Positions 25-52,176 of a stretch of 64,000 nucleotides of DNA are shown in pieces. Origin of the DNA: Enterococcus diestrammenae (GTDB taxonomy: Bacteria > Bacillota > Bacilli > Lactobacillales > Enterococcaceae); the NCBI RefSeq assembly GCF_009933255.1, contig NZ_MAEI01000054.1, forward strand, positions 1-64,000, given 5' to 3'. How positions within the stretch are numbered: the first letter of the stretch is position 1; each line of letters opens with the position of its first letter. A program made the position numbers and the translations under genes. Under the pieces are notes generated by a model, which was not told the origin of the DNA, did not search any database, and worked only from the letters and a program-made list of their open reading frames with translations.

Positions 25-98
25 CGGGAAGTAGCTCAGCTTGGTAGAGCACTTGGTTTGGGACCAAGGGGTCGCAGGTTCGAATCCTGTCTTCCCGA
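25..98 (+). tRNA. tRNA-Pro(TGG)
   Basis: Full cloverleaf. The acceptor CGGGAAG pairs with CTTCCCG, the discriminator is A, the T-loop is GTTCGAATC, and the anticodon loop TTTGGGA carries TGG. CCA is not encoded. Confidence 0.95.
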
Positions 99-112
99 TT
101 CAGAATTTAAAA

Positions 113-185
113 GGGGCCTTAGCTCAGCTGGGAGAGCGCCTGCTTTGCACGCAGGAGGTCAGCGGTTCGATCCCGCTAGGCTCCA
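113..185 (+). tRNA. tRNA-Ala(TGC)
   Basis: Full cloverleaf. The acceptor GGGGCCT pairs with AGGCTCC through one G-T wobble. The anticodon is TGC within TTTGCAC. The G3-T70 wobble is the classical alanine identity element. Confidence 0.95.
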
Positions 186-209
186 TATCATTTAAATAAA
201 TGATTTTTT

Positions 210-283
210 CGCGGTGTAGCTCAGCTGGCTAGAGCGTCCGGTTCATACCCGGGAGGTCGGGGGTTCGATCCCCTTCGCCGCGA
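210..283 (+). tRNA. tRNA-Met(CAT), probable elongator
   Basis: Full cloverleaf with acceptor CGCGGTG/CGCCGCG and anticodon CAT in the loop TTCATAC. The body resembles the Bacillus and Mollicute elongator tRNA-Met. The elongator assignment is by resemblance, because CAT anticodons are also used by initiator and Ile2 tRNAs. Confidence 0.85.
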
Positions 284-296
284 TTTTTTCGAGCCT

Positions 297-370
297 GGAC
301 CTTTAGCTCAGTTGGTTAGAGCAGACGGCTCATAACCGTCCGGTCGTAGGTTCGAGTCCTACAAGGTCCA
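297..370 (+). tRNA. tRNA with CAT anticodon, probably tRNA-Ile2
   Basis: Full cloverleaf with acceptor GGACCTT/AAGGTCC and anticodon CAT in the loop CTCATAA. It resembles the Firmicute and Mollicute tRNA-Ile2, in which C34 becomes lysidine and reads AUA. Automatic callers often label it Met. The amino acid identity is inferred. Confidence 0.85.
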
Positions 371-392
371 TCAGGATCAGTTGTAGGCTTGT

Positions 393-482
393 GGAGGATT
401 ACCCAAGTCCGGCTGAAGGGAACGGTCTTGAAAACCGTCAGGCGGGTAAAACCGTGCAAGGGTTCGAATCCCTTATCCTCCT
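393..482 (+). tRNA. tRNA-Ser(TGA), copy 1
   Basis: Class II tRNA of 90 nt with a long variable arm and anticodon TGA within CTTGAAA. The acceptor is GGAGGAT/ATCCTCC. The encoded discriminator is T, whereas the tRNA-Ser(GCT) at 872-959 has G. An identical copy lies at 1053-1142. Confidence 0.95.
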
Positions 483-516
483 TAGTTGAATAATTATTGT
501 TCAACCCTTTTATTAT

Positions 517-590
<74 letters not shown>

Positions 591-607
591 TTAAAAACTA
601 AAATCCT

Positions 608-680
608 GGTCCCGTAGTGTAGTGGTTATCACGCCTGCCTGTCACGCAGGAGATCGCGGGTTCGAGTCCCGTCGGGACCG
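608..680 (+). tRNA. tRNA-Asp(GTC), copy 1
   Basis: Cloverleaf with acceptor GGTCCCG/CGGGACC, G73 discriminator and anticodon GTC in CTGTCAC. An identical copy lies at 1268-1340. Confidence 0.95.
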
Positions 681-684
681 CCAT

Positions 685-755
685 GCGGGTGTAGTTTAGT
701 GGTAAAACCACAGCCTTCCAAGCTGTTGTCGCGAGTTCGATTCTCGTCACCCGCT
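685..755 (+). tRNA. tRNA-Gly(TCC)
   Basis: Compact 71-nt cloverleaf with acceptor GCGGGTG/CACCCGC and anticodon TCC in CTTCCAA. Confidence 0.95.
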
Positions 756-769
756 TTTAGTTTTTATAT

Positions 770-843
<74 letters not shown>

Positions 844-871
844 TTAAAATCAAAATAGCATTTTTGGTTTT

Positions 872-959
872 GGGGAAGTACTCAAGTGGCTGAAGAGGCG
901 CCCCTGCTAAGGGTGTAGATCGGGAAACCGGTGCGAGGGTTCAAATCCCTCCTTCTCCG
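872..959 (+). tRNA. tRNA-Ser(GCT)
   Basis: Class II tRNA of 88 nt with a long variable arm and anticodon GCT in CTGCTAA. The acceptor GGGGAAG/CTTCTCC includes one G-T pair, and the discriminator is G. Confidence 0.95.
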
Positions 960-966
960 TTTCAAT

Positions 967-1038
967 GGTCCGTTGGTCAAGCGGTTAAGACACCGCCCTT
1001 TCACGGCGGTAACACGGGTTCGAATCCCGTACGGATCA
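967..1038 (+). tRNA. tRNA-Glu(TTC), copy 1
   Basis: Cloverleaf with acceptor GGTCCGT/ACGGATC and anticodon TTC in CTTTCAC. It is repeated at 1528-1599. tRNA-Glu is a substrate of the MnmL/MnmM enzymes encoded at 6324-7897. Confidence 0.95.
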
Positions 1039-1052
1039 TTTTTAGTTTTATT

Positions 1053-1142
1053 GGAGGATTACCCAAGTCCGGCTGAAGGGAACGGTCTTGAAAACCGTCA
1101 GGCGGGTAAAACCGTGCAAGGGTTCGAATCCCTTATCCTCCT
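1053..1142 (+). tRNA. tRNA-Ser(TGA), copy 2
   Basis: Sequence-identical to the copy at 393-482, including the T discriminator. The spacer that follows it is also almost identical to the one after copy 1. Confidence 0.95.
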
Positions 1143-1175
1143 TAGTTGAATAATTATTGTTCAACCTTTTATTAT

Positions 1176-1249
<74 letters not shown>

Positions 1250-1267
1250 TTGTTACGAAACTACATT

Positions 1268-1340
1268 GGTCCCGTAGTGTAGTGGTTATCACGCCTGCCT
1301 GTCACGCAGGAGATCGCGGGTTCGAGTCCCGTCGGGACCG
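1268..1340 (+). tRNA. tRNA-Asp(GTC), copy 2
   Basis: Sequence-identical to the copy at 608-680. Confidence 0.95.
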
Positions 1341-1352
1341 TTGCAGTATTTT

Positions 1353-1425
1353 GGCTCGGTAGCTCAGTTGGTAGAGCAATGGATTGAAGCTCCATGTGTC
1401 GGCAGTTCGATTCTGTCCCGCGCCA
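1353..1425 (+). tRNA. tRNA-Phe(GAA)
   Basis: Cloverleaf with anticodon GAA. The acceptor GGCTCGG/CCGCGCC contains a T-C mismatch at pair 4-69, where other Firmicutes have T-A. The rest of the molecule is regular, so it is probably functional. Confidence 0.93.
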
Positions 1426-1435
1426 TTTGTATCAC

Positions 1436-1509
<74 letters not shown>

Positions 1510-1527
1510 TACATACATTATTAGTAA

Positions 1528-1599
1528 GGTCCGTTGGTCAAGCGGTTAAGACACCGCCCTTTCACGGCGGTAACACGGGTTCGAATCCCGTACGGATCA
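1528..1599 (+). tRNA. tRNA-Glu(TTC), copy 2 (last tRNA of the array)
   Basis: Sequence-identical to 967-1038. Two hairpins with U-rich tails follow within 115 bp. Confidence 0.95.
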
Positions 1600-13036: not shown

Positions 13037-13330
13037 CAAACAGCATATTCCACGATTGACGAGGAGATAGTAGCTAGTCGACTGTTGCAGAGAGCGCATG
13101 GTAGGTGAGAATGCGTACAGGAGCTTGTGAACTGGCCTCAAGTGGTGGTCTTTTGAACCCGCACCGCCTAACATAGGTAAGCGGCAAGTAGAAAGCCACG
13201 GTGACGACCGTTAGCACGTCTGAGGTTTGCTTTGATCACGAAACGGAATCTGGCAAACAAATATAGGTGGTACCGCGTTGACAACGTCCTATGAAAGCTT
13301 TTTTGGCTTTCGTAGGGCGTTTTTTGCATT
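13037..13330 (+). ncRNA. T-box leader of leuS
   Basis: Tandem features of a T-box are visible: a stem I region with AGAGAG-type and GGTGAGAATGC motifs, then the canonical AGGTGGTACCGCG at 13265-13277. A terminator follows (ACGTCCTATGAAAGC paired with GCTTTCGTAGGGCGT, 13284-13326, then TTTT). Uncharged tRNA-Leu should bind and prevent termination. The specifier codon is probably CTC at 13137-13139, with CTG at 13132-13134 as the alternative. Both encode Leu, in line with the downstream gene. Confidence 0.95.
13284..13326 (+). terminator. T-box-controlled intrinsic terminator
   Basis: A long stem of about 15 bp with a T-run. Its left arm can alternatively pair within the T-box antiterminator region (GGTGGTACCGCG). 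Confidence 0.9.
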
Positions 13331-40553: not shown

Positions 40554-41762
40554 ATGAACAATGCCATCAACGGCGTCCACGATCCCACGATTATTGAAGC
40601 AAATGGAACTTACTATATGGTTTCCACCGATACTCAGCAACCAAAAACCAGCGGCGTGCCGATTCGAAGCTCGAAGGATTTGATTCATTGGCGCTTTGAA
40701 AAGACTGCTCTGGAAGACGGTGTGCCGGCAGAAGCCGATGCTTGGACCGGAGCTACCAATGGTCTGGAAGGGTTGTGGGCACCAGAAATTATTAAATACA
40801 ACAATGAGTACCGCATGTATTATTCCGCATCGACTTTTGGTAGCACGACTTCTTATATCGGGTTGGCGTCAGCACCTCATCCCCTAGGACCTTGGGAAGA
40901 TCGCGGAGAAGTGGTGAAAACGGCCCCGCATTTGGCTAGCCACAATGCCATCGATGCCAATATTTGTACTGACCGGGACGGCGAGCAGTGGTTTACGTAT
41001 GGTTCCTTTTTTGGCGGGATTCATATTTGTGCTGTCGACAAAGCAACTGGTAAACTGAAGGATCCTAGCGATTATGGCAAATTAATTGCCATTCGTCCTC
41101 AGTCGGTAGAGGGGGCGATTGAAGGGCCTTTTATTTATTACAATGAAAAAACGGATGACTTCTATCTGTTTGTTTCTTTTGATTCCTTGAATGATACCTA
41201 CAATATTCGGGTGGGGCGTTCCAAGGAGATTACCGGACCGTATCTGGATCGCAACGGACGGGAATTGACGGAGCTTACGGGAGATCCCAATGAAGTGGGG
41301 ACCAAATTGCTAGGGAGCTATCAGTATCTGGATGAAGCGCCATTATACGGTCCAGGGCACAACTCGATTTTCCGGCGTTCCGATGGGGCGGAGTTCTGCG
41401 TCCATCATATCCGTCGTGTACCTCACACCGCCGACTTTTTCGTGGGAATTCGCCAACTTTATTGGACGAGCGATGGTTGGCCACTGGTGAGTGCTGATTT
41501 TTATAATGGCGATCAACCGAAAAAGGCAGTCACCACATCTGATTTAACCGGTGACTGGGAAATTGTCATGTTTAACAAAGCCAGTGATTTGATACCAGCA
41601 GTGAAACAAGAGCTGACAGATGTCACGATTTCTCCGGAAGGTATTTATCGCTGCGCTTTGGGGGAATTCATTCCCTATTGGCAACCAACAACAGACGGCT
41701 TGCGCTTAGAGTTGTCGGGGCTGTCAGAAGCTGGTTTCGGTTTTATTGGACGGAAACTTTGA
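40554..41762 (+). CDS. cytoplasmic GH43 arabinan endo-1,5-alpha-L-arabinosidase-like enzyme
   Basis: GH43 propeller enzyme of 402 aa with no signal peptide, so likely intracellular. Catalytic acids are Asp in GVHDPTII, Asp in NAIDANICTDRDGEQWFTYG and Glu in AIEGPFIYY. YGPGHNSIF and a C-terminal domain similar to that of the lipoprotein arabinanases are present. ATG 40554 has GAAGG upstream. The longer reading from 40518 has no such site. It may debranch or shorten imported arabino-oligosaccharides together with AbfA. Confidence 0.88.
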   Translation: MNNAINGVHDPTIIEANGTYYMVSTDTQQPKTSGVPIRSSKDLIHWRFEKTALEDGVPAEADAWTGATNGLEGLWAPEIIKYNNEYRMYYSASTFGSTTSYIGLASAPHPLGPWEDRGEVVKTAPHLASHNAIDANICTDRDGEQWFTYGSFFGGIHICAVDKATGKLKDPSDYGKLIAIRPQSVEGAIEGPFIYYNEKTDDFYLFVSFDSLNDTYNIRVGRSKEITGPYLDRNGRELTELTGDPNEVGTKLLGSYQYLDEAPLYGPGHNSIFRRSDGAEFCVHHIRRVPHTADFFVGIRQLYWTSDGWPLVSADFYNGDQPKKAVTTSDLTGDWEIVMFNKASDLIPAVKQELTDVTISPEGIYRCALGEFIPYWQPTTDGLRLELSGLSEAGFGFIGRKL

Positions 41763-41802
41763 AAATCACCCATCCCTGAGCTAACGACTGAATACCGATA
41801 AC

Positions 41803-41856
41803 ACCCTCGATAGCGGTGACTGATGCCAATCATCAGCATCGCTATCGAGGGTTTTT
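41803..41856 (+). terminator. long intrinsic terminator ending the arabinan island
   Basis: CCCTCGATAGCG...CGCTATCGAGGG, extended inward to about 20 bp, then TTTTT. A long inverted-repeat element begins within 10 bp of the T-tract. Confidence 0.9.
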
Positions 41857-41862
41857 AGGATA

Positions 41863-42425
41863 CACTAAGATCTTATAAGTTTTAATCTATGTGAAACCCA
41901 TTTTACCAAGGTTTATAGAGAATTTAATACTGCTTTTTTGATGATTCAAAAATGGTGAAATTTAGCTCCGTAGCAATTGAAATAGCTATAGCTGGACCGA
42001 GAAATGCCAAACGTAAAACGTGTTTGTCATTTCCCTTGGAGCTTCAAACTTAGAGTAAGTGTCGCAAGGCGCCACTAACTCTAAGTACATTCATCTCACA
42101 TCCTTTGAGCTACTGCTATTTCAATTCTACTCCGCTAAATTTCACCATTTTTACGATCAATAGTAGATTTAGAAATAATAGAACAACTTAAAACGAATGA
42201 AGGATAAAAAAGTCTATCATAAAAACTGGTTGATCTTATTATAGGTGAATTCTTCGGGTAGTAGTATTAAAGACATCCGAGGGCTAAAGAAGCATATCGC
42301 ATACATTTTACCTAAGCAGAGCTCGCTAAGATGAGCTAGAAAAATGACAACTACTTTTTGGTTGGCATTTACCAGTTCTACGACCACCTGAGGGATTCTC
42401 CAGAAGCAAGTCCGGCCGGTTTTTA
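41863..42425. repeat. composite hairpin element, copy A
   Basis: Two inverted-repeat modules. Module 1 (41948-42152) has arms of about 43 bp starting AAAAATGGTGAAATTTAG, enclosing two inner hairpins (GAGAAATGCCAAACG with its partner, and ACTTAGAGT...ACTCTAAGT). Module 2 (42220-42425) has arms of about 45 bp starting TAAAAACTGG, again with two inner hairpins. No ORF is supported within. Copies lie at 48685 and 51164. A leading segment (CACTAAGATCTTATAAGTTTT) is shared too. Confidence 0.85.
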
Positions 42426-42592
42426 GGATACATCCCATACTCTTTCAGAGACCAATTCGTTTATCTCAACTTTTTTCTTTGATAAAATATCTTATAAGAT
42501 AGAATGCTGTATTTAAAAAATGTATTTTGACAAAAAGTGAGAAGCTAGTAACTGGTTGCAGGACTATTTACAAATGATGAAGGAGAGAAAAA

Positions 42593-43114
42593 ATGGAGAC
42601 AGCACGTTTACGTTTACGTCGATTTACCCCAGAGGATGGGCCAGCAATCCATGGGTATTTGTCAGATGAGCGAGTAGTGGCCTATGAACCCTATCCGCCG
42701 CAAACATTAGCCGAATGTCAAAAGATTGCCCAGCAGCGTTCCCAGTCCCAAACGATGTGGGCGGTATGTCTCAAGGATAGTGGACAGTTGATTGGAAATG
42801 TTTATTTGGCAGAGCAAGATTATCAAAATTGGGAAGTGGGCTACGTCTTCCACTTTGACTTTCAAAAGCAGGGATATGCCACGGAGGCTGTCCGAGAATT
42901 GATTGCGTGGGCTTTTGCTGAAGGGCATGCGCAACGAATTTTTGCTCAGTGCAATCCAAAAAATACGAATTCATGGCGTTTACTGGAGCGTTTGGGTTTT
43001 CAAAGAGAAGGACACTTGCGGAAAAATATCTATTTTGAGCGCAGTGAAGCCGGCACGCCTTTATGGCTGGATACCTTGGTCTATGGATTGTTGGAGGGGG
43101 AATTACAGGGTTGA
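42593..43114 (+). CDS. GNAT acetyltransferase (RimJ/RimL-like)
   Basis: Cytoplasmic acetyl-CoA-dependent N-acetyltransferase of 173 aa. The acetyl-CoA site is the segment HFDFQKQGYATEAVRELI near residue 87, and the C-terminal NTNSWRLLERLGFQREGHLR is typical of RimJ/RimL-type members. The substrate (protein amino terminus, polyamine or drug) is unknown. AAGGAGAG lies before the ATG. It stands alone between a long repeat element and a hairpin. Confidence 0.88.
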   Translation: METARLRLRRFTPEDGPAIHGYLSDERVVAYEPYPPQTLAECQKIAQQRSQSQTMWAVCLKDSGQLIGNVYLAEQDYQNWEVGYVFHFDFQKQGYATEAVRELIAWAFAEGHAQRIFAQCNPKNTNSWRLLERLGFQREGHLRKNIYFERSEAGTPLWLDTLVYGLLEGELQG

Positions 43115-43199
43115 AACCTTGGTTATCAGAAAAAATGTTGTACAGGGACTAAAATGAAAGCGCAAAAAGAACGGTATCCAACTCTGTAAGACGTAAAAA

Positions 43200-43252
43200 C
43201 AAAGGAGATAGTAAACCCACAGGAACGATACCGTGAGTTTATATCTCCTTCG
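43200..43252. terminator. long hairpin between the GNAT and XRE genes
   Basis: AAAGGAGATAGTAAAC pairs with GTTTATATCTCCTT with one or two mismatches, stem about 20 bp. It is probably a bidirectional terminator between convergent genes. Confidence 0.6.
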
Positions 43253-43320
43253 TGTTTCAGATGTCTGAGGGAGGATTAAGTTTTTTTAATTGACTCTTGC
43301 TGTACTTTTTCAAGCTTTTC

Positions 43321-43905
43321 TTATTTGTGAATTCGTTTTTTATCAAGTAGCGTTTGGATAGTAGATTTTTCCGTTTTATTAGGCTTTATTTTATTTACAG
43401 GACTTTCTAATTTATACTTTTCAATATTCTTGATAGTAGCATCAATTTCTTCGCCGTTTTCAAGGATTAGTTTATCATACATACCTTGTGAATCTACAGT
43501 AGTATCTTCAACGCTATAGACCCGCAGAACCAATCCATGCTCTTTGATTTCTGCCTCTTCTCTATGTTGTTGATAGTAACCCAATCCTGATATAAGAACT
43601 AATATTGCGACGGCTAGCGCGGTAATTATTCCCGTGTATTTTGGAAACAAGCTCATCAAATCCTTTCTTTTATTTTTTCTCCGAATACTCTTGGTTTCGT
43701 AGACGATTTGCTTTCTTCCGACTAACTCATCTAAAGAAATATGATAGAGATCACAGAGCCAGATGAGATTTTCAATATCGGGGAAGCTACGATCATTTTC
43801 CCATTTTGAGATTGTTTGTCTGGAGACATTTAAAATCTGCGCTAATTGTTCCTGAGTCATACCATTGTTCATTCGATAGTGTTGTAGAGATTTTCCTATT
43901 TCCAT
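43321..43905 (-). CDS. XRE-family regulator with a transmembrane segment
   Basis: DNA-binding protein of 194 aa. The helix-turn-helix at residues 5-60 reads MTQEQLAQILNVSRQTISKW. A basic stretch is followed by one membrane helix (TGIITALAVAILVLISGLGY, about residues 92-111) and an 80-residue Lys/Glu-rich outer domain. This suggests membrane-linked signal sensing. It diverges from the orphan ORF at 44123 across a region with two overlapping inverted repeats, a possible target. The function is not known. Confidence 0.78.
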   Translation of the reverse strand: MEIGKSLQHYRMNNGMTQEQLAQILNVSRQTISKWENDRSFPDIENLIWLCDLYHISLDELVGRKQIVYETKSIRRKNKRKDLMSLFPKYTGIITALAVAILVLISGLGYYQQHREEAEIKEHGLVLRVYSVEDTTVDSQGMYDKLILENGEEIDATIKNIEKYKLESPVNKIKPNKTEKSTIQTLLDKKRIHK

Positions 43906-43999
43906 TTGCTGTCACCTCTCATAATGTAAGTATAAAAAAATTTATTCCAATAACCAAGAAACAAACGGTTGCGGTGAGGTCATATTGAGTAAAAATGAT

Positions 44000-44097
44000 A
44001 TGTAAAGGAAACGCGACATCGTAAAATACGACTATATTTGTGCTACTTTCCCTTTACATTGCTATTATTCTGTGTAGGGAACGCTTACAAATATAGT
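44000..44097. repeat. two overlapping, mutually exclusive inverted repeats
   Basis: IR1: ATGTAAAGGAAA (44000-44011) with TTTCCCTTTACAT (44047-44059). IR2: ACTATATTTGTGCTACTTTCCCT (44031-44053, given here by its ends and centre) with AGGGAACGCTTACAAATATAGT (44076-44097). The TTTCCCT segment is shared, so only one hairpin can form at a time. Confidence 0.7.
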
Positions 44098-44122
44098 TTT
44101 TAATGAAAATAATCTTAAATCT

Positions 44123-44506
44123 ATGCAAATTGAGGCTAATAGCTTAGTACTTACGTTTTCTGATGAAACAAAAATATCAATTGATGACTATAATCCTAAT
44201 TATTTTGATAGTAGTCATTTTGAATTTAACGTACAGGAATCATATAGTTTGATTACACCTAGGGCAGGAGGCAATATTAATTTCCCGAATAAGGTTACTG
44301 TCAGTAAAACAACTTATGGAACTTCTAGCTACCCACCAGGACAAATAAACGCGACAGCAACTCGAAGAAAAGCTTACCAAGAAAGAATATACGAAGCTAC
44401 CTATAGTGGGAAAATTTTACTTTCGTCTATTCAAGGAGGTACTGGCGGAGGTAAAACATACGTATATTCGGGTTCAATTCCATATATCTCACATCGTCAG
44501 GTATAG
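44123..44506 (+). CDS. hypothetical protein, possible exported-protein remnant
   Basis: Unrecognised 127-aa protein rich in Ser, Thr, Tyr and Gly, with a C-terminal beta-like stretch (YEATYSGKILLSSIQGGTGG, then YVYSGSIPYISHRQ). No signal peptide and no ribosome binding site precede the ATG at 44123. The frame is open back to 44078 and reads GTLTNIVFNENNLKS, so the N-terminal part, possibly a signal sequence, may have been lost or may lie in another frame. The composition resembles secreted Firmicute proteins. It is a lone gene ending at a strong terminator. Confidence 0.5.
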   Translation: MQIEANSLVLTFSDETKISIDDYNPNYFDSSHFEFNVQESYSLITPRAGGNINFPNKVTVSKTTYGTSSYPPGQINATATRRKAYQERIYEATYSGKILLSSIQGGTGGGKTYVYSGSIPYISHRQV

Positions 44507-44523
44507 GGATATTGTGACCAATA

Positions 44524-44552
44524 AAAAGGCCGCTTTTGATTGCGGCCTTTTT
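44524..44552. terminator. bidirectional terminator
   Basis: AAAAAGGCCGC pairs with GCGGCCTTTTT between the orphan ORF and murE. Confidence 0.92.
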
Positions 44553-44568
44553 CCATTATTCATCTGAG

Positions 44569-46083
44569 TCAAACCGCTGCTTCAATCAAGCGCTTTGCAA
44601 TCACGTAGTCCCCGTCGTAAGGGGTGTCTTCGCCGTTGATTTTTTGCATCGGGTCTTCCCCTTTGCCGGCGATTAAGACGACATCGTTTGGTTGGGCTAG
44701 TTGGAAAGCAAGGGCGATTGCTTTAGCTCGATCCATTTCGTAGAGGATTTCTACTTGTGGATTGTTGATGGCTCTCGCGATTTCTTGGGCGATGGTCAAG
44801 GCATCTTCAAAGGCCGGGTCGTCCATGGTTAAGACGGCCACATCTGCTAGTTCCGAAAGTACTTGGCCGAAATCTTGGCGCCGACTGATGGCTTTGTTGC
44901 CTGGCGAGCCCAGCACGACGATTTGTCGACCTTCTGGATGTACTTTGCGGGTGTATTCTAAGAACAGTTTCAAGCTGATGTAGTTGTGGGCATAATCCAC
45001 ATAGACTGTGGCGCCGTTATGAAGGGTGAGTTGCAACATCCGACCAGGCACGGTGATGTTGGCCAGTCCCAGATAGGCGTCTTCAGTGGTAGCCCCTAGT
45101 AAAGCACTACTTAAAATAGCTGCACAGGCATTGTCTTGATTGAAATCGCCAGGGAGCTTGACGCGGTAGTTGCCGGTCATTTTTAGTGGATCGAGTCGAC
45201 CTTCTAAATAAAACTCGTTGGGATTGGTTGCTGATGAGCTGACTAAGTAGTCGCCACTGTTGCGCCCATAAGTATATAGTGGAATTCCTGCTAAGTGACA
45301 ACTTTCGTCAACTAACTGATAGTAATCCATATCCGCATCAACAATCGCCACTCGGGAATTGTAAATCAGTTCTCGTTTACAATAGAAGTAATCGTCAAAT
45401 GTTGGGTGTTCGATGGGACTGATATGGTCAGGAGAAATGTTTAAAAAGACGCCAACATCATATTTTAAGCCATATACGCGGTCTAGTTTATAAGCTTGCG
45501 AGGAGACTTCCATCACTAAGTGGGTCATGCCATGGCTTACTGCTTCTGCCATCATCTTGTAAAGGTCTAACGATTCCGGTGTCGTCAGATGAGACTTGAA
45601 AAAATGTTCGCCATCTAACGTGGTTTGCATGGTGGACAGCATCGCGCACTTATTGCCAGTGGCCTGTTGTAAAATCCCGTGAGCGAAATAAGCGGCTGTC
45701 GTTTTACCCTTGGTACCGGTGAAAGCCAAGACTTTCAACTGATTTTGCGGATAATCATAGAAGGCCATACTCAAGAGGGCCATCGCTTTGCGGATATCAG
45801 TGACGATGATGCCGCAAGCCAAGGCGACTTCATAAGGCTGTTCTGCCACATAGGCCAATAATCCTTGTTCTTGGGCCTTGACTAAATAATCTTCCTTAAA
45901 TGTCGCCCCTTTGGCAAAAAAGAGGGTATTGCTGTCGGCTTGGCGGGAATCGTAGGAAATCTTGCCAAAGGTCATGGTAGGCAATTGCTTTTTAGCCAAA
46001 TGCCAACCATCCGGCAAGATGAATTCTTTTAGTAGATGGTGTTCTTGCAAAATATCATAAACGGTAGCCAGTGTCAGAGTCAC
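44569..46083 (-). CDS. murE: UDP-N-acetylmuramoyl-tripeptide synthetase, L-lysine-adding
   Basis: Mur ligase that adds the third stem-peptide residue to UDP-MurNAc-L-Ala-D-Glu. The ATP site is AFTGTKGKTTAAYF near residue 115. The specificity loop reads DDPA, where DAP-adding enzymes have DNPR, so L-Lys is expected. VMEVSSQAYKL and NISPDHI are further family motifs. GTG at 46083 is preferred because ATGAGG, nine bases upstream, is a good ribosome binding site and homologues begin at this point. The ATG at 46098 has none. At 504 aa it is of normal length. Confidence 0.95.
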   Translation of the reverse strand: MTLTLATVYDILQEHHLLKEFILPDGWHLAKKQLPTMTFGKISYDSRQADSNTLFFAKGATFKEDYLVKAQEQGLLAYVAEQPYEVALACGIIVTDIRKAMALLSMAFYDYPQNQLKVLAFTGTKGKTTAAYFAHGILQQATGNKCAMLSTMQTTLDGEHFFKSHLTTPESLDLYKMMAEAVSHGMTHLVMEVSSQAYKLDRVYGLKYDVGVFLNISPDHISPIEHPTFDDYFYCKRELIYNSRVAIVDADMDYYQLVDESCHLAGIPLYTYGRNSGDYLVSSSATNPNEFYLEGRLDPLKMTGNYRVKLPGDFNQDNACAAILSSALLGATTEDAYLGLANITVPGRMLQLTLHNGATVYVDYAHNYISLKLFLEYTRKVHPEGRQIVVLGSPGNKAISRRQDFGQVLSELADVAVLTMDDPAFEDALTIAQEIARAINNPQVEILYEMDRAKAIALAFQLAQPNDVVLIAGKGEDPMQKINGEDTPYDGDYVIAKRLIEAAV

Positions 46084-46241
46084 GGATAAACGCCTCATTT
46101 CGTCAAAATTCTCTGTTCATTATAGCACACGGGAGAAAGGGGTGAAATATTCAAGAATTGCTAGGCTTGCGAGAGCGGGTTAAGAAGTAGGAAGATAGGA
46201 AATAGTATTTCTCAGGAGTGGCCTTGTTGGCAGCCGGTTTA

Positions 46242-46676
46242 TCAGTGAGTATTTAGATAACTTTGGTGAATATCTGTCGGCAAGTTGTCTGGAATTTGAG
46301 CATTGACGGCAGCTTCGTTTCCCTGTTTGATGGCTTCATCGTAGTACCAAGATTTGAATTTCAACATGTCCAAGACTCGTTCTAGTTTTTCGATTTCTGC
46401 TTCGACGATTTCTCGTTGGTGATCAAAGAGTTCTTTACGAGCAGGATAAGTTTCTTTGCCTAGCTTCGTCCAAGTCATGAAGAGTTTGATGTCTTTGATT
46501 TCCAGACCAGATTTTTTCAAGCAGTCGATAATCCGAAGTGCTTCAATCTCATTGTCGGAAAACTTGCGAATACCGGAGACCCGCTGTATATCAGGAAAGA
46601 GCCCTTCTTTATCGTAATAACGCAAGGTGGAAACCGGCAAATTGAACCGTTTCGCCACTTCACCGATTGAATACAT
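46242..46676 (-). CDS. MerR-family regulator
   Basis: Transcription factor of 144 aa. The winged helix (YSIGEVAKRFNLPVSTLRYYD) is at the N-terminus. A long coiled-coil dimerisation helix is around residues 80-115 and a short C-terminal effector region follows. There is no cysteine metal-binding loop, so the signal is probably organic. The start at 46676 has TTGGAGGAA upstream. The divergent DXS-like gene is the probable target through the dyad at 46713-46730. Confidence 0.88.
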   Translation of the reverse strand: MYSIGEVAKRFNLPVSTLRYYDKEGLFPDIQRVSGIRKFSDNEIEALRIIDCLKKSGLEIKDIKLFMTWTKLGKETYPARKELFDHQREIVEAEIEKLERVLDMLKFKSWYYDEAIKQGNEAAVNAQIPDNLPTDIHQSYLNTH

Positions 46677-46708
46677 AAAAATTCCTCCAACTTTTTTCAT
46701 TTTTTTGC

Positions 46709-46766
46709 TTGACCTAAAGTCAGGTTTAGGTATTACGATTGTAAAGTGCTTTTGCTAAAAGGTCAA
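46709..46766. promoter_or_regulatory. divergent merR/DXS-like promoters with MerR dyad
   Basis: The plus-strand promoter is TTGACC (46709-46714), 16 bp, TATTAC (46731-46736), with the dyad CCTAAA-6-TTTAGG (46713-46730) filling the spacer, as MerR proteins require. The minus-strand promoter for merR is TTGACC (46761-46766), 17 bp, TACAAT (46738-46743). The dyad then lies just downstream of its start, allowing autoregulation. Confidence 0.7.
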
Positions 46767-46851
46767 TGGTAGCTGCTCGATTTGCTTTGATGAGCTTAAA
46801 ACGGGTCCCGTACTTTAAAAAAAATTTTAAAAGAAGATAGGAGTCTTACAT

Positions 46852-48615
46852 TTGCTAGAAATGATTCAATCACCAACAGATTTAAAACAATTAACCCCTG
46901 AAGAATTACAAACTGTCGTGGAGGAAGCGCGTCAAGCCTTGTTGACGAAAATTAGCCAACACGGCGGACACAACGGCCCAAATTTGGGTGTAGTGGAATT
47001 GACGGTGGCGCTGCATACCGTCTTTGATTCCCCCACAGATAAACTTATTTTCGACGTCTCACACCAATCTTATGTCCACAAAATGTTGACGGGCCGGAGT
47101 CAAGCATTTACCGATGCCACCCACTTTGACGATGTATCTGGTTACACCAATCCCCAAGAAAGCGACCATGATCTGTTTACTGTTGGGCATACTTCCACCT
47201 CCCTTTCCTTGGCCAATGGTGTGGCGAAAGCGCGGGATTTGAAACAAGAAAATTACAATGTTGTGGCAGTCATCGGGGACGGTTCTCTTTCTGGCGGGTT
47301 GGCCTATGAAGGCTTGAACAATATCGTCGAACTGGGGACCAACACGATCGTCATCGTCAATGACAATGACCAGTCCATCGCGGAAAATCATGGTGGCTTG
47401 TATCGCAACTTGAAGACTTTGCGAGAAACTCATGGAGCAGCCAGCGATAATTTCTTTAAAGCACTGGGTTTTGAGTATCATTATTTAGCAGAGGGCAACG
47501 ATTTGCAGGCGGTGATGGAATTACTGAAAGAGGTAAAAGATAGCAATCAGCCAGTCTTGTTGCACATCCACACTATCAAGGGCAAAGGGTTCAAGTTTGC
47601 CGAAGCGAATCGCGAAAAATTCCATGCCGGTGGCCCCTTTAGCTTGGAAACTGGGGAATACTTGGGGCAAAGTACAGCTCAAGCGACCTACAATAGTGTG
47701 ACGACTGACTTTCTAATGAAGAAAATGCAAGAAGATCCTACTGTCGTCGCCCTCAATGCTGGGACGCCGATGATGTTGTTCTCACCAGAGCAGCGGGCTC
47801 AAGTTGGGGCTCAGTTTGTCGATGTGGGCATCGCAGAAGAACATGCAGCGACCATGTCGGCAGGTTTGGCTAAAAATGGCGCCAAGCCAGTCTGGGCGGT
47901 AAATTCCACCTTCATGCAACGAAGCTACGACCAAATTAGTCATGATATTGCTTTGAACAATCTGCCAGCAACGATTTTGGTTTATCAAGCGTCGGTTAAC
48001 GGTATGAACGACGAAAGCCATCTAGGGATCTTTGATATCCCATTTTTAAGTCATATTCCTAATCTGGTATACTTAGCGCCAACTTCCAAAGAGGAATATC
48101 TTGCTATGTTGGACTGGTCCATCGAACAAGATCAACAGCCAGTGGCTATTCGCGTGCCTGTTGGTCCGTTACAGGAAACAGGCGTGGCTGATGCGACCGA
48201 CTATTCACTCTTGAATAAAAATGCCGTGACCCAAACTGGTAGGGACGTGGCGATACTGGGAGTCGGGAATTTTTATCCGCTGGCCCAAGCAATCGCCACG
48301 GAATTGGCGGTAAAACATGGCATTCAAGCCACTGTCATCAATCCGAGATTTATCTCTGGGGTGGATAGAAAACTGTTGGATTCACTAACCGTTGATCACC
48401 AAGTTCTTGTCACGCTAGAAGATGGCATTTTAGACGGTGGTTATGGTCAAACGGTGGCCAGCTATTTAGGGCAAACGACTTTGAAAGTGTTAAATTATGG
48501 ATTGGACAAGGCCTTCCACGACCGCTACGTTGCCGCTGACTTGCTGGCAGCCACTGGTATTACCGTAGAAAAGATTGTCCGCGAAATTTTGACAACAGTA
48601 GCAACAAAAGACTAG
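46852..48615 (+). CDS. DXS-like thiamine-diphosphate enzyme
   Basis: ThDP-dependent transketolase-like enzyme of 587 aa, closest in plan to 1-deoxy-D-xylulose-5-phosphate synthase. Visible: GGHNGPNLGVVELTVALH near residue 38, the ThDP motif GDGSLSGGLAYEGLNN near 142, the catalytic Glu in DVGIAEEHAATMSAG near 324, and FMQRSYDQISHDIA. Two DXS hallmarks differ: the DRAG motif reads ASVNG, and YPRG reads VPVG, removing both arginines known to hold the acceptor phosphate. It may therefore use another acceptor. TTG is the start, eight bases after AGGAG. It is controlled by the divergent MerR protein. Confidence 0.82.
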   Translation: MLEMIQSPTDLKQLTPEELQTVVEEARQALLTKISQHGGHNGPNLGVVELTVALHTVFDSPTDKLIFDVSHQSYVHKMLTGRSQAFTDATHFDDVSGYTNPQESDHDLFTVGHTSTSLSLANGVAKARDLKQENYNVVAVIGDGSLSGGLAYEGLNNIVELGTNTIVIVNDNDQSIAENHGGLYRNLKTLRETHGAASDNFFKALGFEYHYLAEGNDLQAVMELLKEVKDSNQPVLLHIHTIKGKGFKFAEANREKFHAGGPFSLETGEYLGQSTAQATYNSVTTDFLMKKMQEDPTVVALNAGTPMMLFSPEQRAQVGAQFVDVGIAEEHAATMSAGLAKNGAKPVWAVNSTFMQRSYDQISHDIALNNLPATILVYQASVNGMNDESHLGIFDIPFLSHIPNLVYLAPTSKEEYLAMLDWSIEQDQQPVAIRVPVGPLQETGVADATDYSLLNKNAVTQTGRDVAILGVGNFYPLAQAIATELAVKHGIQATVINPRFISGVDRKLLDSLTVDHQVLVTLEDGILDGGYGQTVASYLGQTTLKVLNYGLDKAFHDRYVAADLLAATGITVEKIVREILTTVATKD

Positions 48616-48639
48616 TATCATCAATAAGCAAACAGGAGA

Positions 48640-48681
48640 AGCCACCACGCCAGCTAAGGAGTTGGCGTGGTGGCTATTTTT
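48640..48681 (+). terminator. intrinsic terminator after the DXS-like gene
   Basis: AGCCACCACGCCA pairs with TGGCGTGGTGGCT, then ATTTTT. Confidence 0.92.
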
Positions 48682-48684
48682 AAT

Positions 48685-49250
48685 AGACTAAGTTCTTATA
48701 AGTTTTAATCGATGTGAAACACCGTTTTACCAAGGTTTATAGAGAATGTCAGACTGTTTTTCGATGGTACAAAAATGGTGGAATTTAGCTCCATAGGAAT
48801 TGAAATAGCTGTATCTGGACCGGGAAATACCAAGCGTAAACCGTGTTTGTCAATTCCCTTGGAGCTTCAAACTTAGAGTAAGTGTCACAAGTGCTACCAA
48901 CTCTAAGTAATTCATCTCACATCCTGTGGGCTACTGCTATTCCAATTCTACTCCGCTAAATTTCACCATTTTTACGATATGCTGCCACCTTTTTAAGGAA
49001 GAAAATAGCAAGCTTTGGGGAGCAAAGTCATTAATCGATTAGAGATAAAACAGGCGGATTTGATGGAGGAGAATGCCTCGGGTTGTAGTGTTAAGGATGT
49101 CCGAGGGCTAAAAGACCATTGCGCATACAGTTGCATCTAAGCAGAGAGCGCTAAGATGAACTAGAAAAATGACAACTGTTTTTTTGTTGGCATTTACCGG
49201 TCCCACTACCACCCGAGGCATTCCCCGGAAGCAAGACGGCCCTGTTTTCT
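48685..49250. repeat. composite hairpin element, copy B
   Basis: Same plan as copy A. Module 1 is 48771-48973 and module 2 is 49047-49250. It starts four bases after the preceding terminator T-tract. The inner hairpin of module 1 reads GTGTCACAAGTGCTAC where copies A and C read GTGTCGCAAGGCGCCA, a paired G-C to A-T change plus one deleted base. No ORF is supported between 48682 and 49472. Confidence 0.85.
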
Positions 49251-49472
49251 CAGAAGGGCTGTCTTTTGGGACGCTAAAGGATTAGCGTAGAAAAAATTGC
49301 GCTTGCCATGCTAGCCAACGAAGGAAAGGAAAGCTATTGCTAAGTACCAATCCCCATTTATGTTCAATCATTTTTGCTAAATAAATTAAATCTTCTCAAA
49401 TTCTGTTGTTTGCTTGGCGGTTTATAGTAAAATGAGTTCATATGTTTAAATTTGTGAATCAGGAGAGACGAT

Positions 49473-51116
49473 ATGGCAGAAAATAAGTCACCGCAACAAT
49501 CCCTATCCGCCCAAGAACGGATGGCCCGTGGTTCTAGCTGGCTCACGCTAGGCAATGTCGGTTCTCGGCTATTAGGTGCGATCTATGTGGTACCGTGGTT
49601 TTATTGGTTGGGCAGCGACCAATACCAAGCCAATGCCTTGTTCAATATGGGCTACAATTTTTATGCACTATTTTTGATGATTTCCACCGCAGGGATTCCG
49701 GCGGCATTCAGTAAGCAAACGGCGCATTACAATTCCCTCAATGAATACGCCACGAGTCGCCGCTTATTCAAAAATGCTTTAGCTGTGATGGCGGTTTTCG
49801 GAGCCATTTGTAGTGGCGTGATGTATCTCAGTGCCCCGTGGCTAGCTTCGATTTCAGGTGGGGGTTCGGATCTGATTCCGGTCATTCGCTCCTTAAGTGT
49901 GGCGGTCTTGATTATCCCTTGTATGAGTATTATTCGCGGCTATTTCCAAGGACAGCACGATATGATGCCATATGCGATTTCCCAGTTAGCTGAACAAGTA
50001 GCGCGGATTTTTTACATGTTATTGGCGACGTTCTTCATTATGAAAGTCGGTTCAGGAAAATATGTCGAAGCCGTGGTGCAATCGACATTCGCTGCGTTTC
50101 TTGGAGCGATTGCTAGTATTTTAGTGCTGCTGTACTTTTTCCAAAAAAATCGGGTCCGGATGGATTATCTGGTGGAACACAGTGCCAATAAAGTCAAACT
50201 CGATACCAAAGAATTGATTTTGGAAACCATCCGAGAAGCGATTCCGTTTATTATTATCGGGACGGGGATTACCATTTTCAAATTGGTGGACCAAGTGACC
50301 TTTGTCCGGACGATGCAAGGCTTTACGACCTATTCGGAAAGTCAGCTGCAAAAATTGTTCTCGATTTTTAGTGCCAATCCGGATAAACTCACCATGGTGG
50401 TGATCGGGCTAGCGACTTCCATGGCCTCTACCGGGTTGCCTTTGATTACCGAAGCAACGACTTTGAACCGCCGAGACGATTTGGCGAAATTGATTTCTAA
50501 CAACTTGCAGCTGTTTGCTTTTGTGATGCTACCGGCAACTTTTGGGATGATGGTGTTGGCTTATCCGTTAAACACCTTCTTCTATGCCCCAAGCCATCTG
50601 GGGACACAAGTGTTGTTAGTGGCTTGTATTGCCGGGCTGTTTTTGGGCTTGTATTCCATGACTTCCAGCATGTTACAGGGGATGTATGAAAATGGGTCAG
50701 CCATCGCCTATTTTGTGATTGGCCTCTTAGTAAAACTTCTGGTGCAATACCCACTGATTCGCGTGTATGAAGTCTATGGACCATTGTTCTCTACGATGAT
50801 TGGCTTTGCGGTAATCTGTGGCTTGAATCTCTGGAAATTACAAAAAGTTTCCCGCTTCAATGCTGTCTTGACTTTCCGGCGCGTCGTTCTAATCTTCTTG
50901 ATGAGTCTTGGTATGACAGTACTAGCACTGGTGACGCGCCAGATTTTAGGAATCTTCTTGAATACCAATAGTAAAATGCAATCTTTAGTCATGATTTTGC
51001 TAGTGGCTGCCGTTGGTGGTGGGGTCTACGTCTTTATGGCGCTGAAGACACGCTTAGCAGACAAGCTATTAGGCAATATGGCAGATACGATTCGACGAAA
51101 ATTACACTTGAAATAA
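49473..51116 (+). CDS. MurJ/YtgP-type lipid II flippase (polysaccharide exporter family)
   Basis: Integral membrane protein of 547 aa with about 14 helices, MOP/MVF superfamily. Homologues in streptococci and staphylococci (YtgP/MurJ) flip lipid II across the membrane for peptidoglycan synthesis. The conserved N-terminal GSSWLTLGNVGSRLLGAIYV and the RGYFQGQHDMMPYAISQLAE region support this. AGGAGAGACG precedes the ATG. Other members export capsule or teichoic repeats, but no sugar-polymer genes adjoin. It stands between two copies of the hairpin element. Confidence 0.85.
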   Translation: MAENKSPQQSLSAQERMARGSSWLTLGNVGSRLLGAIYVVPWFYWLGSDQYQANALFNMGYNFYALFLMISTAGIPAAFSKQTAHYNSLNEYATSRRLFKNALAVMAVFGAICSGVMYLSAPWLASISGGGSDLIPVIRSLSVAVLIIPCMSIIRGYFQGQHDMMPYAISQLAEQVARIFYMLLATFFIMKVGSGKYVEAVVQSTFAAFLGAIASILVLLYFFQKNRVRMDYLVEHSANKVKLDTKELILETIREAIPFIIIGTGITIFKLVDQVTFVRTMQGFTTYSESQLQKLFSIFSANPDKLTMVVIGLATSMASTGLPLITEATTLNRRDDLAKLISNNLQLFAFVMLPATFGMMVLAYPLNTFFYAPSHLGTQVLLVACIAGLFLGLYSMTSSMLQGMYENGSAIAYFVIGLLVKLLVQYPLIRVYEVYGPLFSTMIGFAVICGLNLWKLQKVSRFNAVLTFRRVVLIFLMSLGMTVLALVTRQILGIFLNTNSKMQSLVMILLVAAVGGGVYVFMALKTRLADKLLGNMADTIRRKLHLK

Positions 51117-51125
51117 TGAATCCAC

Positions 51126-51162
51126 AAAAAAGGTTATGGCGAAAAATCCATAACCTTTTTTG
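51126..51162 (+). terminator. intrinsic terminator
   Basis: AAAAAGGTTATGG pairs with CCATAACCTTTTT. Confidence 0.92.
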
Positions 51163-51163
51163 T

Positions 51164-51797
51164 AGACTAAGGCCTTATAAGTTTTCATCGATTTGAAATT
51201 CAATTTTACCAAGGGTTATTGAAAGTTTCATACTGTTTTCGATGGTACAAAAAGGGTGAAATTTAGCTCCGTAGGAATTGAAATAGCTGTCGCTGGACCG
51301 GGAAATGCCAAACGTAAACCGTGTTTGTCATTTCCCTTGGAGTTTCAAACTTAGAGTAAGTGTCGCAAGGCGCCACCAACTCTAAGTACTTTCATCTCAC
51401 ATCCTGTGAGCTACTGCTATTCCAATTCTACTACGCTAAATTTCACCTTTTTCACGGTACACATGCTAACCTACAAGAAAATAATTTGTTGGATCTACGA
51501 AGCAAAGGGAATAAATCAATTATCAACAAAACAGGGTGGACTTGCTGGAGGAGAATCTCTCGGGTTGTAGTGTTACGGATGTCTGAGGGCTAAAGGAATG
51601 TATCGCATACAGTTCACCTAAGCAGAAATCGCTAAGGTGAGCTAGCCAATTATTGGTTGTTATCTGCCTGGTTTTTAGCGAATTTACAACCAGTTTGACT
51701 TCAGTAAGGGCAATGACAAACAGGAACTTTGTTTGGCATTGGCCGGTCCCACTACAACTCGAGGAATTCTCCAGAAGCAAGTTTGCCCTGTTTTTTT
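51164..51797. repeat. composite hairpin element, copy C
   Basis: Module 1 is 51249-51452 and module 2 is 51528-51797. Module 2 is longer here, with an extra inner segment including CAGGAACTTTG, and its right arm ends CCCTG plus eight T, like a terminator. In module 1 a T-A pair of copies A and B is changed on both arms to G-T, keeping the stem as RNA. It fills the 720-bp gap before the DUF1801 gene. Confidence 0.85.
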
Positions 51798-51837
51798 ATG
51801 TTTTCTTAACAAGAAACTGAATCGTGAACTAGCGAAT

Positions 51838-52176
51838 TTATTTTGCCATCTCCGTCAGGCGAAAAGCAATCATTTGACGAATCAAGTCTTCGGGTAGCGG
51901 TTTGGTGTAAGGAAATTGGACAGCACCTTTTGAAGTTTTATAACCTGTAAGTTCGCTGGCAAATTGTTCGATTGGTCCGGGAGTGGGGTAAAAACCTAGA
52001 TGATTTTTTGCAGTGGCAAAATGGAGAATGTTTTTGCCGTGATAAAAGGTCGGCATGCCGTAACTGATGCGTTCTTCGGCGGTAGGAAGGAGTTCTTTGG
52101 CTAAGGTATAGATTGCTTTGAGATGCGGCTGAGCGCTTTCTGGTGCAGTAGCAATATAATCGGTAATGACGGTCAT
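51838..52176 (-). CDS. DUF1801 family protein
   Basis: Small cytoplasmic protein of 112 aa. The segment ERISYGMPTFYHGKNILHFA and the GAVQFPYTKPLP motif mark the DUF1801/YdhG-like fold. The molecular function of this family is not established. The start at 52176 has AAGGAGGAA upstream. A longer in-frame ATG at 52221 does not. Confidence 0.85.
   Translation of the reverse strand: MTVITDYIATAPESAQPHLKAIYTLAKELLPTAEERISYGMPTFYHGKNILHFATAKNHLGFYPTPGPIEQFASELTGYKTSKGAVQFPYTKPLPEDLIRQMIAFRLTEMAK

What the first reader, a model, noticed from the sequence alone, without database searches (positions are those of the whole stretch)
41863..51797. Three composite long-hairpin elements in intergenic DNA
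Copies at 41863-42425, 48685-49250 and 51164-51797 share over 550 bp of layout: a leader, a 205-bp module with 43-bp arms, and a 205-270-bp module with 45-bp arms. Each module encloses two smaller hairpins, so each would fold into a cloverleaf-like shape. They contain no ORF and no transposase. Three copies in 10 kb suggest either active spread or a conserved RNA role. I do not recognise the family.
Basis: seen in the sequence. Interest (0 to 1): 0.7.

Follow-up and report, generated by a model that had tools for sequence, protein, structure and literature searches.

The report
Mini-transposons parked behind gene terminators
The three long hairpin sequences look like copies of a small passenger transposon that moves with the help of a rolling-circle (IS91-type) transposase and lands just after the stop signals of genes, perhaps because those stop signals resemble the transposon's own end.

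Summary
In detail: three composite hairpin elements, 41861-42425, 48684-49252 and 51163-51798. They belong to a dispersed family with at least 40 places in this genome (scoring stopped at 40). The second module is the first in reverse complement. Pairing covaries, but wobble pairs show no strand bias, so an RNA role is not supported.

The elements sit directly behind intrinsic terminators: 27 of 31 left ends by at least one of two scripts. IS91-type (HUH/Y2) insertion sequences of lactic acid bacteria do the same: 25 of 28 tested. Left ends of two sister subtypes resemble IS left ends (6 and 1 of 2000 shuffles as good); of the window copies only copy 3 does (5 of 2000). The right end is a stem plus T-tract, often TTTCTTA as in the ISs.

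Best reading: non-autonomous rolling-circle elements whose subterminal hairpins became cloverleaf modules, and which target terminators because hairpin plus T-run mimics their own right end. No transposase was found in this genome. Novelty: new variant of a known kind.

The parts
41800..41855 (+). host intrinsic terminator hairpin, followed by a T-run, that copy 1 abuts
   Evidence: inverted repeat I2; sequence; missed by the generic terminator scan and by both scripts (loop of 18)
41861..42425 (+). element copy 1 (left end to right end)
   Evidence: left-end motif at 41861, 1 mismatch; right end CCGGTTTTTA read; BLAST to copy 3
41861..41948 (+). copy 1 left end / leader (subtype TACACTAAG...TTATAAG)
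41949..42152 (+). copy 1 module A (forward unit)
42219..42419 (-). copy 1 module B (the same unit in reverse complement)
48640..48675 (+). host terminator hairpin, followed by a T-run, that copy 2 abuts
   Evidence: and terminator scan
48684..49252 (+). element copy 2
   Evidence: left-end motif at 48684; right end CTGTTTTCTCA read
48772..48973 (+). copy 2 module A
49044..49251 (-). copy 2 module B (reverse unit)
51121..51166 (+). host terminator hairpin and T-run that copy 3 abuts
   Evidence: inverted repeat I3; one search lists this hairpin on the - strand only
51163..51798 (+). element copy 3
   Evidence: left-end motif at 51163; right end CCCTGTTTTTTTA read
51250..51453 (+). copy 3 module A: outer stem, two branch hairpins
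51525..51797 (-). copy 3 module B (reverse unit); its stem runs into the terminal T-tract
51604..51649 (+). small hairpin S (CTAAGCAGAAATCGCTAAG core), present none, one or two times per unit in different copies

Best explanation
The elements are non-autonomous rolling-circle transposons derived from, or parasitic on, IS91-type insertion sequences (transposase with HUH/Y2 and IS91 zinc domains) of lactic acid bacteria. The left end (TAGAYWAAG..CTTATAA in its subtypes) lies at the target; the right end is a stem followed by a T-tract, often TTTCTTA. In the autonomous ISs a hairpin of about 25-34 nt lies inside each end. Here these appear to have been replaced by two copies, in opposite orientation, of a unit of about 200 nt (long stem with branch hairpins). 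Inferred mechanism: a transposase supplied in trans nicks at the right end (hairpin plus TTTTCTTA|), moves a single strand, and inserts it at a host site of the same shape, an intrinsic terminator (hairpin plus T-run). Insertions would then fall behind genes, on the strand of the terminator, and do little harm; and since the inserted right end is itself terminator-like, further copies can insert behind it. Shown: copy family, inverted duplication of the unit, terminator sites of the elements and of transposase-bearing relatives, exact left junctions of relatives against empty sites, similar ends. Inferred: trans-mobilisation, terminator recognition as mimicry of the right end, and the modules acting as single-stranded DNA folds.
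For: Family and places. Terminator upstream: 22 of 31 left ends in each of two scripts, 27 of 31 in at least one; controls 127 of 4000 and 185 of 3000 random windows and 145 of 600 T-rich windows. ISs: 19 of 21 and 6 of 7 more. Left ends: subtype TAGATAAAG 19 of 26 to the pELF_USZ IS (6 of 2000 shuffles as good), subtype III 17 of 26 to the L. paracasei and Pediococcus ISs (1 and 3 of 2000), copy 3 16 of 26 (5 of 2000). Right ends: TTTCTTA in 10 of 40 copies and TTTCTCA in 4, against TTTCTTA in 37 of 4000 random windows; ISs end hairpin + TTTTCTTA. Transposase domains Y2_Tnp E 1.7e-40, Zn_Tnp_IS91 E 7.7e-23. Empty sites...ATTTTTTTA|TTTTAC against ...ATTTTTTTA|ACAGTAAAG...CTTTTTTTA|TTGG against ...CTTTTTTTA|ACATTAAAGG. 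G012 holds 12 places with the transposase's zinc domain and structured elements with similar ends (5 of 7 loci read). At the tuf terminator G012 has the IS, G013 a mini-element, 12 other sister loci read have neither. A second left end behind a right end, by eye, in L170, L014, L018.
Against: Left ends of copies 1 and 2 do not match any of six IS left ends beyond chance (best 13 and 14 of 26; 349 and 154 of 2000 shuffles as good); the link of this subtype rests on the shared modules, sites and right ends. The 20 of 23 bases was one hand-picked register. No transposase of this type was found in the genome (one search had no positive control). Right flanks of the two E. faecium plasmid ISs do not continue the empty site and the tuf gap is diverged, so absence of a target duplication is not shown. 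18 of 40 copies show none of the three right-end forms, some being truncated. One site reads TTTTTTCG, not TTTTTTTA. L128's left end has no terminator by eye although the script accepts it. Modules A and B are not seen in the ISs, so their origin and role are unexplained.
Confidence: 0.77

Rival explanations
1. The modules are a structured non-coding RNA, transcribed from the element or by read-through, and kept for an RNA function; mobility is secondary.
For: Covarying folds: 96.6% of cells paired, 86 cells with both sides changed against 29.6 in shuffles and 1 to 10 in slid controls (further pair types do not exceed the shuffles, 34 against 35.4). Conserved loop and junction sequences. Hairpin S keeps its loop while its helix differs on both sides in another species, G001.
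Against: The copies lie behind terminators, so host transcription should mostly stop before them. G-U (24) and A-C (26) cells are balanced in module A. In module B they are 75 against 29, but 31 against 28 without the five pairs whose commonest type is G-U. Promoter-like sites in 41500-52000 are at shuffle level, 18 against 19.9. No Rfam match. Copies are truncated and rearranged, L021 with module A inverted.
Confidence: 0.11
2. Cut-and-paste MITEs or BOX-like repeats of another transposase, found behind terminators because insertions elsewhere are selected against.
For: Modular make-up with variable inner hairpins, nested copies and a place downstream of genes all resemble pneumococcal BOX (PMC3049150: passages and section 5 read). 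The left ends of copies 1 and 2 do not match the IS left ends beyond chance.
Against: The left edge falls within a few bases of a terminator T-run on the terminator's strand, and ISs in G012 and on plasmids do the same, which selection alone would hardly give. Candidate target duplications in L008, L015 and L017 are better read as a second left end or a shared T-run. BOX is reported to have terminal repeats and target duplications.
Confidence: 0.09
3. Remnants of a group IIC-type retroelement, which also inserts behind terminators.
For: Same target choice: class C introns insert downstream of Rho-independent terminators (PMC3522654, passages).
Against: No group II intron match in Rfam over the window or at E up to 5 over copy 3.
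Confidence: 0.02

Closest known systems
IS91 family insertion sequences (IS91, ISCR; HUH Y2 transposases)
   Same: Right-end form, insertion behind terminators and, for sister subtypes, left-end sequence are those of IS91-type elements carrying Y2_Tnp and Zn_Tnp_IS91 domains. No target duplication recognised.
   Different: No transposase gene inside. Target is a terminator hairpin plus T-run; classical IS91 is recalled to use GAAC/CAAG. Two large branched modules not seen in the autonomous ISs read.
Helitrons (eukaryotic rolling-circle transposons)
   Same: [quoted passage not shown] Abundant non-autonomous copies are recalled.
   Different: Bacterial; terminator target. The short A-T target of Helitrons is recalled.
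BOX elements of Streptococcus pneumoniae
   Same: Outer stem with inner hairpin modules in variable number; intergenic, nested.
   Different: BOX is reported to have terminal inverted repeats and target duplications. No sequence comparison with BOX was run here.
SPRITE repeats of S. pneumoniae
   Same: 18-bp duplex plus T-rich tract, enriched downstream of genes, no target duplication established: like a bare right end.
   Different: Smaller and single. A link is speculation.
REP/BIME elements with RAYT transposases
   Same: Hairpin units in alternating orientation in extragenic DNA (PMC2817692: title and abstract start in listing), linked to HUH transposases (PMC5714925 passages).
   Different: REPs are about 20-40 bp (recalled); no RAYT was searched for here.
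Group IIC introns
   Same: Insert downstream of intrinsic terminators.
   Different: Ribozyme and reverse transcriptase; no match here.

Membership tests
IS91 family (non-autonomous derivative) | Transposase with HUH/Y2 and IS91 zinc domains in the element or in a relative with similar ends | tested here: met
   Met by relatives: L178 carries PF04986 and PF14319 (PF14319 in 16 of 103 family genomes). The element has none and none was found in its genome
IS91 family (non-autonomous derivative) | Left-end sequence homologous to the IS left end | tested here: inconclusive
   Subtype TAGATAAAG (6 of 2000 shuffles as good), subtype III (1 and 3 of 2000) and copy 3 (5 of 2000) resemble IS ends; copies 1 and 2 do not
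IS91 family (non-autonomous derivative) | Right end: hairpin followed by TTTTCTTA, as in the ISs read | tested here: met
   TTTCTTA in 10 of 40 copies, TTTCTCA in 4, TTTTTA in 8, other 18; random windows 37 of 4000 for TTTCTTA. Window copies: TTTTTA, TTTCTCA, TTTTTTTA
IS91 family (non-autonomous derivative) | No target duplication | tested here: inconclusive
   Left junctions exact against empty sites; right flanks not contiguous in the plasmids and diverged at the tuf site
IS91 family (non-autonomous derivative) | Classical tetranucleotide target GAAC/CAAG (recalled) | tested here: not met
   Sites are hairpin + T-run. The transposase-bearing relatives of this clade also lack the classical target, so this sets the clade apart and does not exclude the element
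BOX element | Terminal inverted repeats and target duplication | tested here: inconclusive
   No obvious terminal repeat or duplication on reading the ends of 40 copies; not tested statistically
BOX element | boxA/boxB/boxC sequence | not tested
   No BOX sequence was fetched
Group IIC intron | Intron core (Rfam group II model) | tested here: not met
   No match
Known structured RNA family | Rfam match | tested here: not met
   Window at gathering cut-offs, copy 3 with its flanks at E up to 5: only four sub-threshold hits, over the host terminator and its edge

The most novel reading that the evidence does not exclude
A clade of IS91-type transposons in lactic acid bacteria finds its targets by structure: the host's intrinsic terminators are mistaken for, or used as, the transposon's own hairpin + T-tract origin end. 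It has given rise to swarms of non-autonomous elements whose terminal hairpins grew into exchangeable branched modules that act as single-stranded DNA folds for the HUH enzyme.
Probability: 0.46. Interest if true: 0.78.

Novelty: new variant of a known kind. Interest (0 to 1): 0.61.

Why it matters
It would give HUH rolling-circle transposons a target rule based on shape (hairpin plus T-run) and would explain a class of long hairpin repeats behind genes. A terminator target is a safe harbour: an insertion there should neither break a gene nor change its transcript. It also makes a clear, testable link between the origin end of a transposon and its target choice, and warns that structure-based RNA searches may mistake such DNA elements for non-coding RNAs.

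Tried and rejected
Rfam searches: no family. DNA search of plasmids and phages with copy 3: no match. Target duplications: matching repeats at both ends of L008, L015, L017 and L011 looked like duplications at first. They were dropped because the repeated letters are the start of the left-end consensus or the shared T-run, and because L170, L014 and L018 show, by eye, a second left end behind a right end. RNA reading: tested with wobble asymmetry and promoter scan and not supported. The generic terminator scan shows no excess over shuffles (9 against 9.9) and lists only the copy 2 terminator on the + strand. Orthologous regions of nine congeners, read by eye on both sides of the transporter gene, show no element, but are too diverged for a base-exact empty site. 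Literature searches on IS91, terminators, Enterococcus repeats and MITEs listed no paper describing terminator targeting by IS91-type elements, nor this repeat family; the library holds open-licence papers only. No covariance model was built.
Full report
Observation. The three copies are real and fold far better than shuffled sequence. Their edges are 41861-42425, 48684-49252 and 51163-51798. Copy 3 used as a BLAST query finds 111 pieces at 40 places in the same genome (3,158,141 bases in 54 contigs); of 113 first-look candidates only 40 were scored, so this is a lower bound. Listed pieces are 70 to 93% identical to copy 3, and many copies are truncated or rearranged. In nine congeners the same query gave only a short inner hairpin, in G001. 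With a second copy as query, 5 of 105 family genomes including G000 matched, with five candidates scored per genome; G004 then matched at the left end.

Anatomy. A full element has a left end of about 90 bp, module A, a spacer of roughly 70 bp, and module B. Module B is homologous to the reverse complement of module A. Within copy 3, 44 bases match in inverted orientation at 79.5%, and a joint alignment of A units with reversed B units shows the same order: stem, GACCGG, first hairpin, CAAACTT, second hairpin, returning stem. The element is thus two copies of one unit in opposite orientation. Inner hairpins vary: hairpin S (core CTAAGCAGAAATCGCTAAG) is absent, single or double in different units, at two positions but in one orientation in the unit's own frame. 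In L021 module A is inverted as a whole.

Structure. On 21 A units the consensus fold has 65 pairs; 96.6% of cells are standard pairs; 86 cells show changes on both sides, against 29.6 in shuffles and 1 to 10 when partners are slid; the number of further pair types (34) does not exceed the shuffles (35.4). Pairing is therefore maintained, though subfamilies share their changes. Departures that are G-U on the modelled strand (24 cells) are no commoner than A-C (26 cells), which would be G-U on the other strand. For 13 B units the raw counts are 75 and 29; without the five pairs whose commonest type is G-U, which a fold of that strand picks by construction, they are 31 and 28 (by hand). Selection on an RNA of one strand should favour G-U; a DNA fold, or exchange between the arms, would not.

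Ends and sites. The left ends fall into subtypes: TAGATAAAGAACTTATAAAA; TAGACTAAGGTCTTATAAG, that of the window copies; and TAGACTAAGGTATTATAAA. A shared pattern is found 33 times with at most one mismatch (at up to three mismatches it gives 108 against 50 for the reversed control). Several left ends belong to elements without full modules, for example L144, about 150 bp. Of the 33, 31 were in hand with 55 bases upstream. A strict hairpin + T-run script called 22 of 31, against 127 of 4000 random windows. A folding script called 22 of 31, against 185 of 3000 random and 145 of 600 T-rich windows. At least one script called 27 of 31. Of the other four, L008 (copy 1) and L022 show a hairpin by eye (copy 1's is also), L040 follows another element's right end, and L169 shows none. 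In the window the three host terminators are 41800-41855, 48640-48675 and 51121-51166.

The link to IS91. The family search brought in L128, where a left end of the first subtype is followed by an open frame of 111 aa with an IS91 zinc domain, and L127, a left end behind a terminator in G004. A Pfam search for that domain hit 16 of 103 family genomes but not G000; a protein search of G000 with a full transposase gave nothing, without a positive control. G012 has 12 matches; the listed open frames (246 to 919 aa) partly run through masked stretches. The unmasked 432-aa frame of L178 (G026) has Y2_Tnp and Zn_Tnp_IS91 domains. The G012 ISs begin AACATTAAAGGAAGTATAACATTTTAAG and, where the end is readable, finish CCTCAGGAGCGGTTTTCTCCTGAGGTTTTCTTA; nearly all sit behind terminators, L189 shows none, and L192 sits behind another element's right end. 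Named relatives on plasmids of E. faecium, E. avium, Pediococcus pentosaceus and Lacticaseibacillus paracasei do the same. Of 35 transposase loci at hand (30, 5 plasmids) I first tested 21, where I had recognised a left end: 19 of 21. Of the 14 left out, 7 have a left end close to the gene and 6 of these 7 pass (L174 fails); L182, which is L128, passes by score but shows no terminator by eye; the other 7 have none recognised near the gene. Together 25 of 28. These are not all independent: L181 and L183 have the same flank, and L178 and L198 similar ones.

How alike are the ends? In one register the first subtype and the pELF_USZ IS agree at 20 of 23 bases. With a free register over 26 bases and six IS left ends the best values are: first subtype 19 (6 of 2000 shuffles as good), third subtype 17 (1 of 2000), copy 3 16 (5 of 2000), copy 2 14 (154 of 2000), copy 1 13 (349 of 2000). 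So the window subtype is tied to the ISs through its modules, sites and right ends more than through its left end. At right ends TTTCTTA occurs in 10 of 40 copies, TTTCTCA in 4, TTTTTA in 8 and none of these in 18 (some truncated), against 37 of 4000 random windows for TTTCTTA.

Empty sites. Two E. faecium plasmids without the IS read ...CTCCATTTTTTTA|TTTTAC and ...GATCACTTTTTTTA|TTGG, where the IS-bearing ones read ...CTCCATTTTTTTA|ACAGTAAAG and ...GATCACTTTTTTTA|ACATTAAAGG; in L. paracasei the shared part ends CTTTTTTCG, with AC common to both continuations. The target is thus hairpin + T-run, and the IS itself ends in hairpin + TTTTCTTA. The right flanks are not those of the empty E. faecium plasmids, so a rearrangement or one-ended event may have happened there. 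At the tuf terminator G012 carries the IS; of 13 of 19 sister loci that I read, L298 (G013) has a mini-element of about 90 bp and 12 have none.

Non-autonomous elements beside the IS. G012 also holds structured non-autonomous elements (27 BLAST pieces for one of them). Of seven loci read, five end in GCTGAGCGAGTTCGCGAAGCCTTTCTT or a close variant, start with left ends such as TACTTAAAGGGAGTATAAAATTTT behind terminators, and carry branched hairpins; in L275 and L279 I could not recognise both ends. The third subtype in G000 (for example L219, L221) has a matching outer stem, GGCTTCACGAACTAGCTC...GAGCTGAACGAGTTCGTTCAGCC, directly before the T-tract. I therefore read module B as the right-end hairpin of the IS grown large, and module A as the counterpart of the hairpin behind the left end. 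This last step is inference.

Mechanism. IS91 moves one strand by rolling-circle transposition from an origin end to a terminus end and makes no direct repeats (PMC5714925, passages). The model: a transposase in trans acts on hairpin + TTTTCTTA, and accepts host terminators as targets because they have the same form. It explains the place, the strand, the lack of recognised duplications and the apparent tandem copies (L170, L014, L018). It predicts that the hairpin and the T-run of the target are both needed. It does not explain why the modules are so large or why they covary; a need for strong folding as single-stranded DNA is my preferred guess, and exchange between arms is an alternative.

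Known or new. IS91-type elements, MITE-like derivatives and terminator targeting (class C introns, PMC3522654 passages) are each known. My searches listed no paper on terminator targeting by IS91-type elements or on this repeat family. I file it as a new variant of a known kind.

Noticed in passing
L126, L130, L132 (G001): Hairpin S recurs in a congener inside a different long inverted-repeat intergenic element; its helix is changed on both sides (GTTGAACT/AGTTCAAC for GTTCACCT/AGGTGAGC) while the loop is kept. The core pattern (up to 1 mismatch) is found in 3 of 103 family genomes: 35 places in G000, 4 in G001, 1 in G061; the reversed control in 1 place.
   Followed up: partly
L298 (G013), tuf-rpsJ gap: A mini-element of about 90 bp (left end, short hairpin GGCTTCGCGAAAGCC, TTTCTCA) sits at the same tuf terminator that holds the full IS in G012: recurrent use of one site.
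   Followed up: partly
L233, L234 (E. faecium plasmids NZ_CP038997.1, NZ_OU016038.1): IS91-type copies whose right flanks do not continue the empty site; both lie near a GntR/SIS-domain region, which may point to one-ended transposition carrying neighbouring DNA.
   Followed up: partly
L125 (G047), about 1420-1625: A lone module resembling reversed unit B in another genus of the family, without a recognised left end.
   Followed up: no
L219, 735-830: A left end immediately followed by its own inverted copy (TAGACTAAGGTATTATAGA...TCTATAATACCTTAGTCTA), forming a perfect terminal hairpin in the third subtype.
   Followed up: no
window 25-1599, 2329-2438, 13047-13294: A dense tRNA array, a SAM-III riboswitch and a T-box leader (Rfam).
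   Followed up: no
literature, PMC3049150: Pneumococcal SPRITE repeats (18-bp duplex plus T-rich tract, AAAA/TTTT ends, no target duplication established) look like bare right ends of such elements; worth testing.
   Followed up: no
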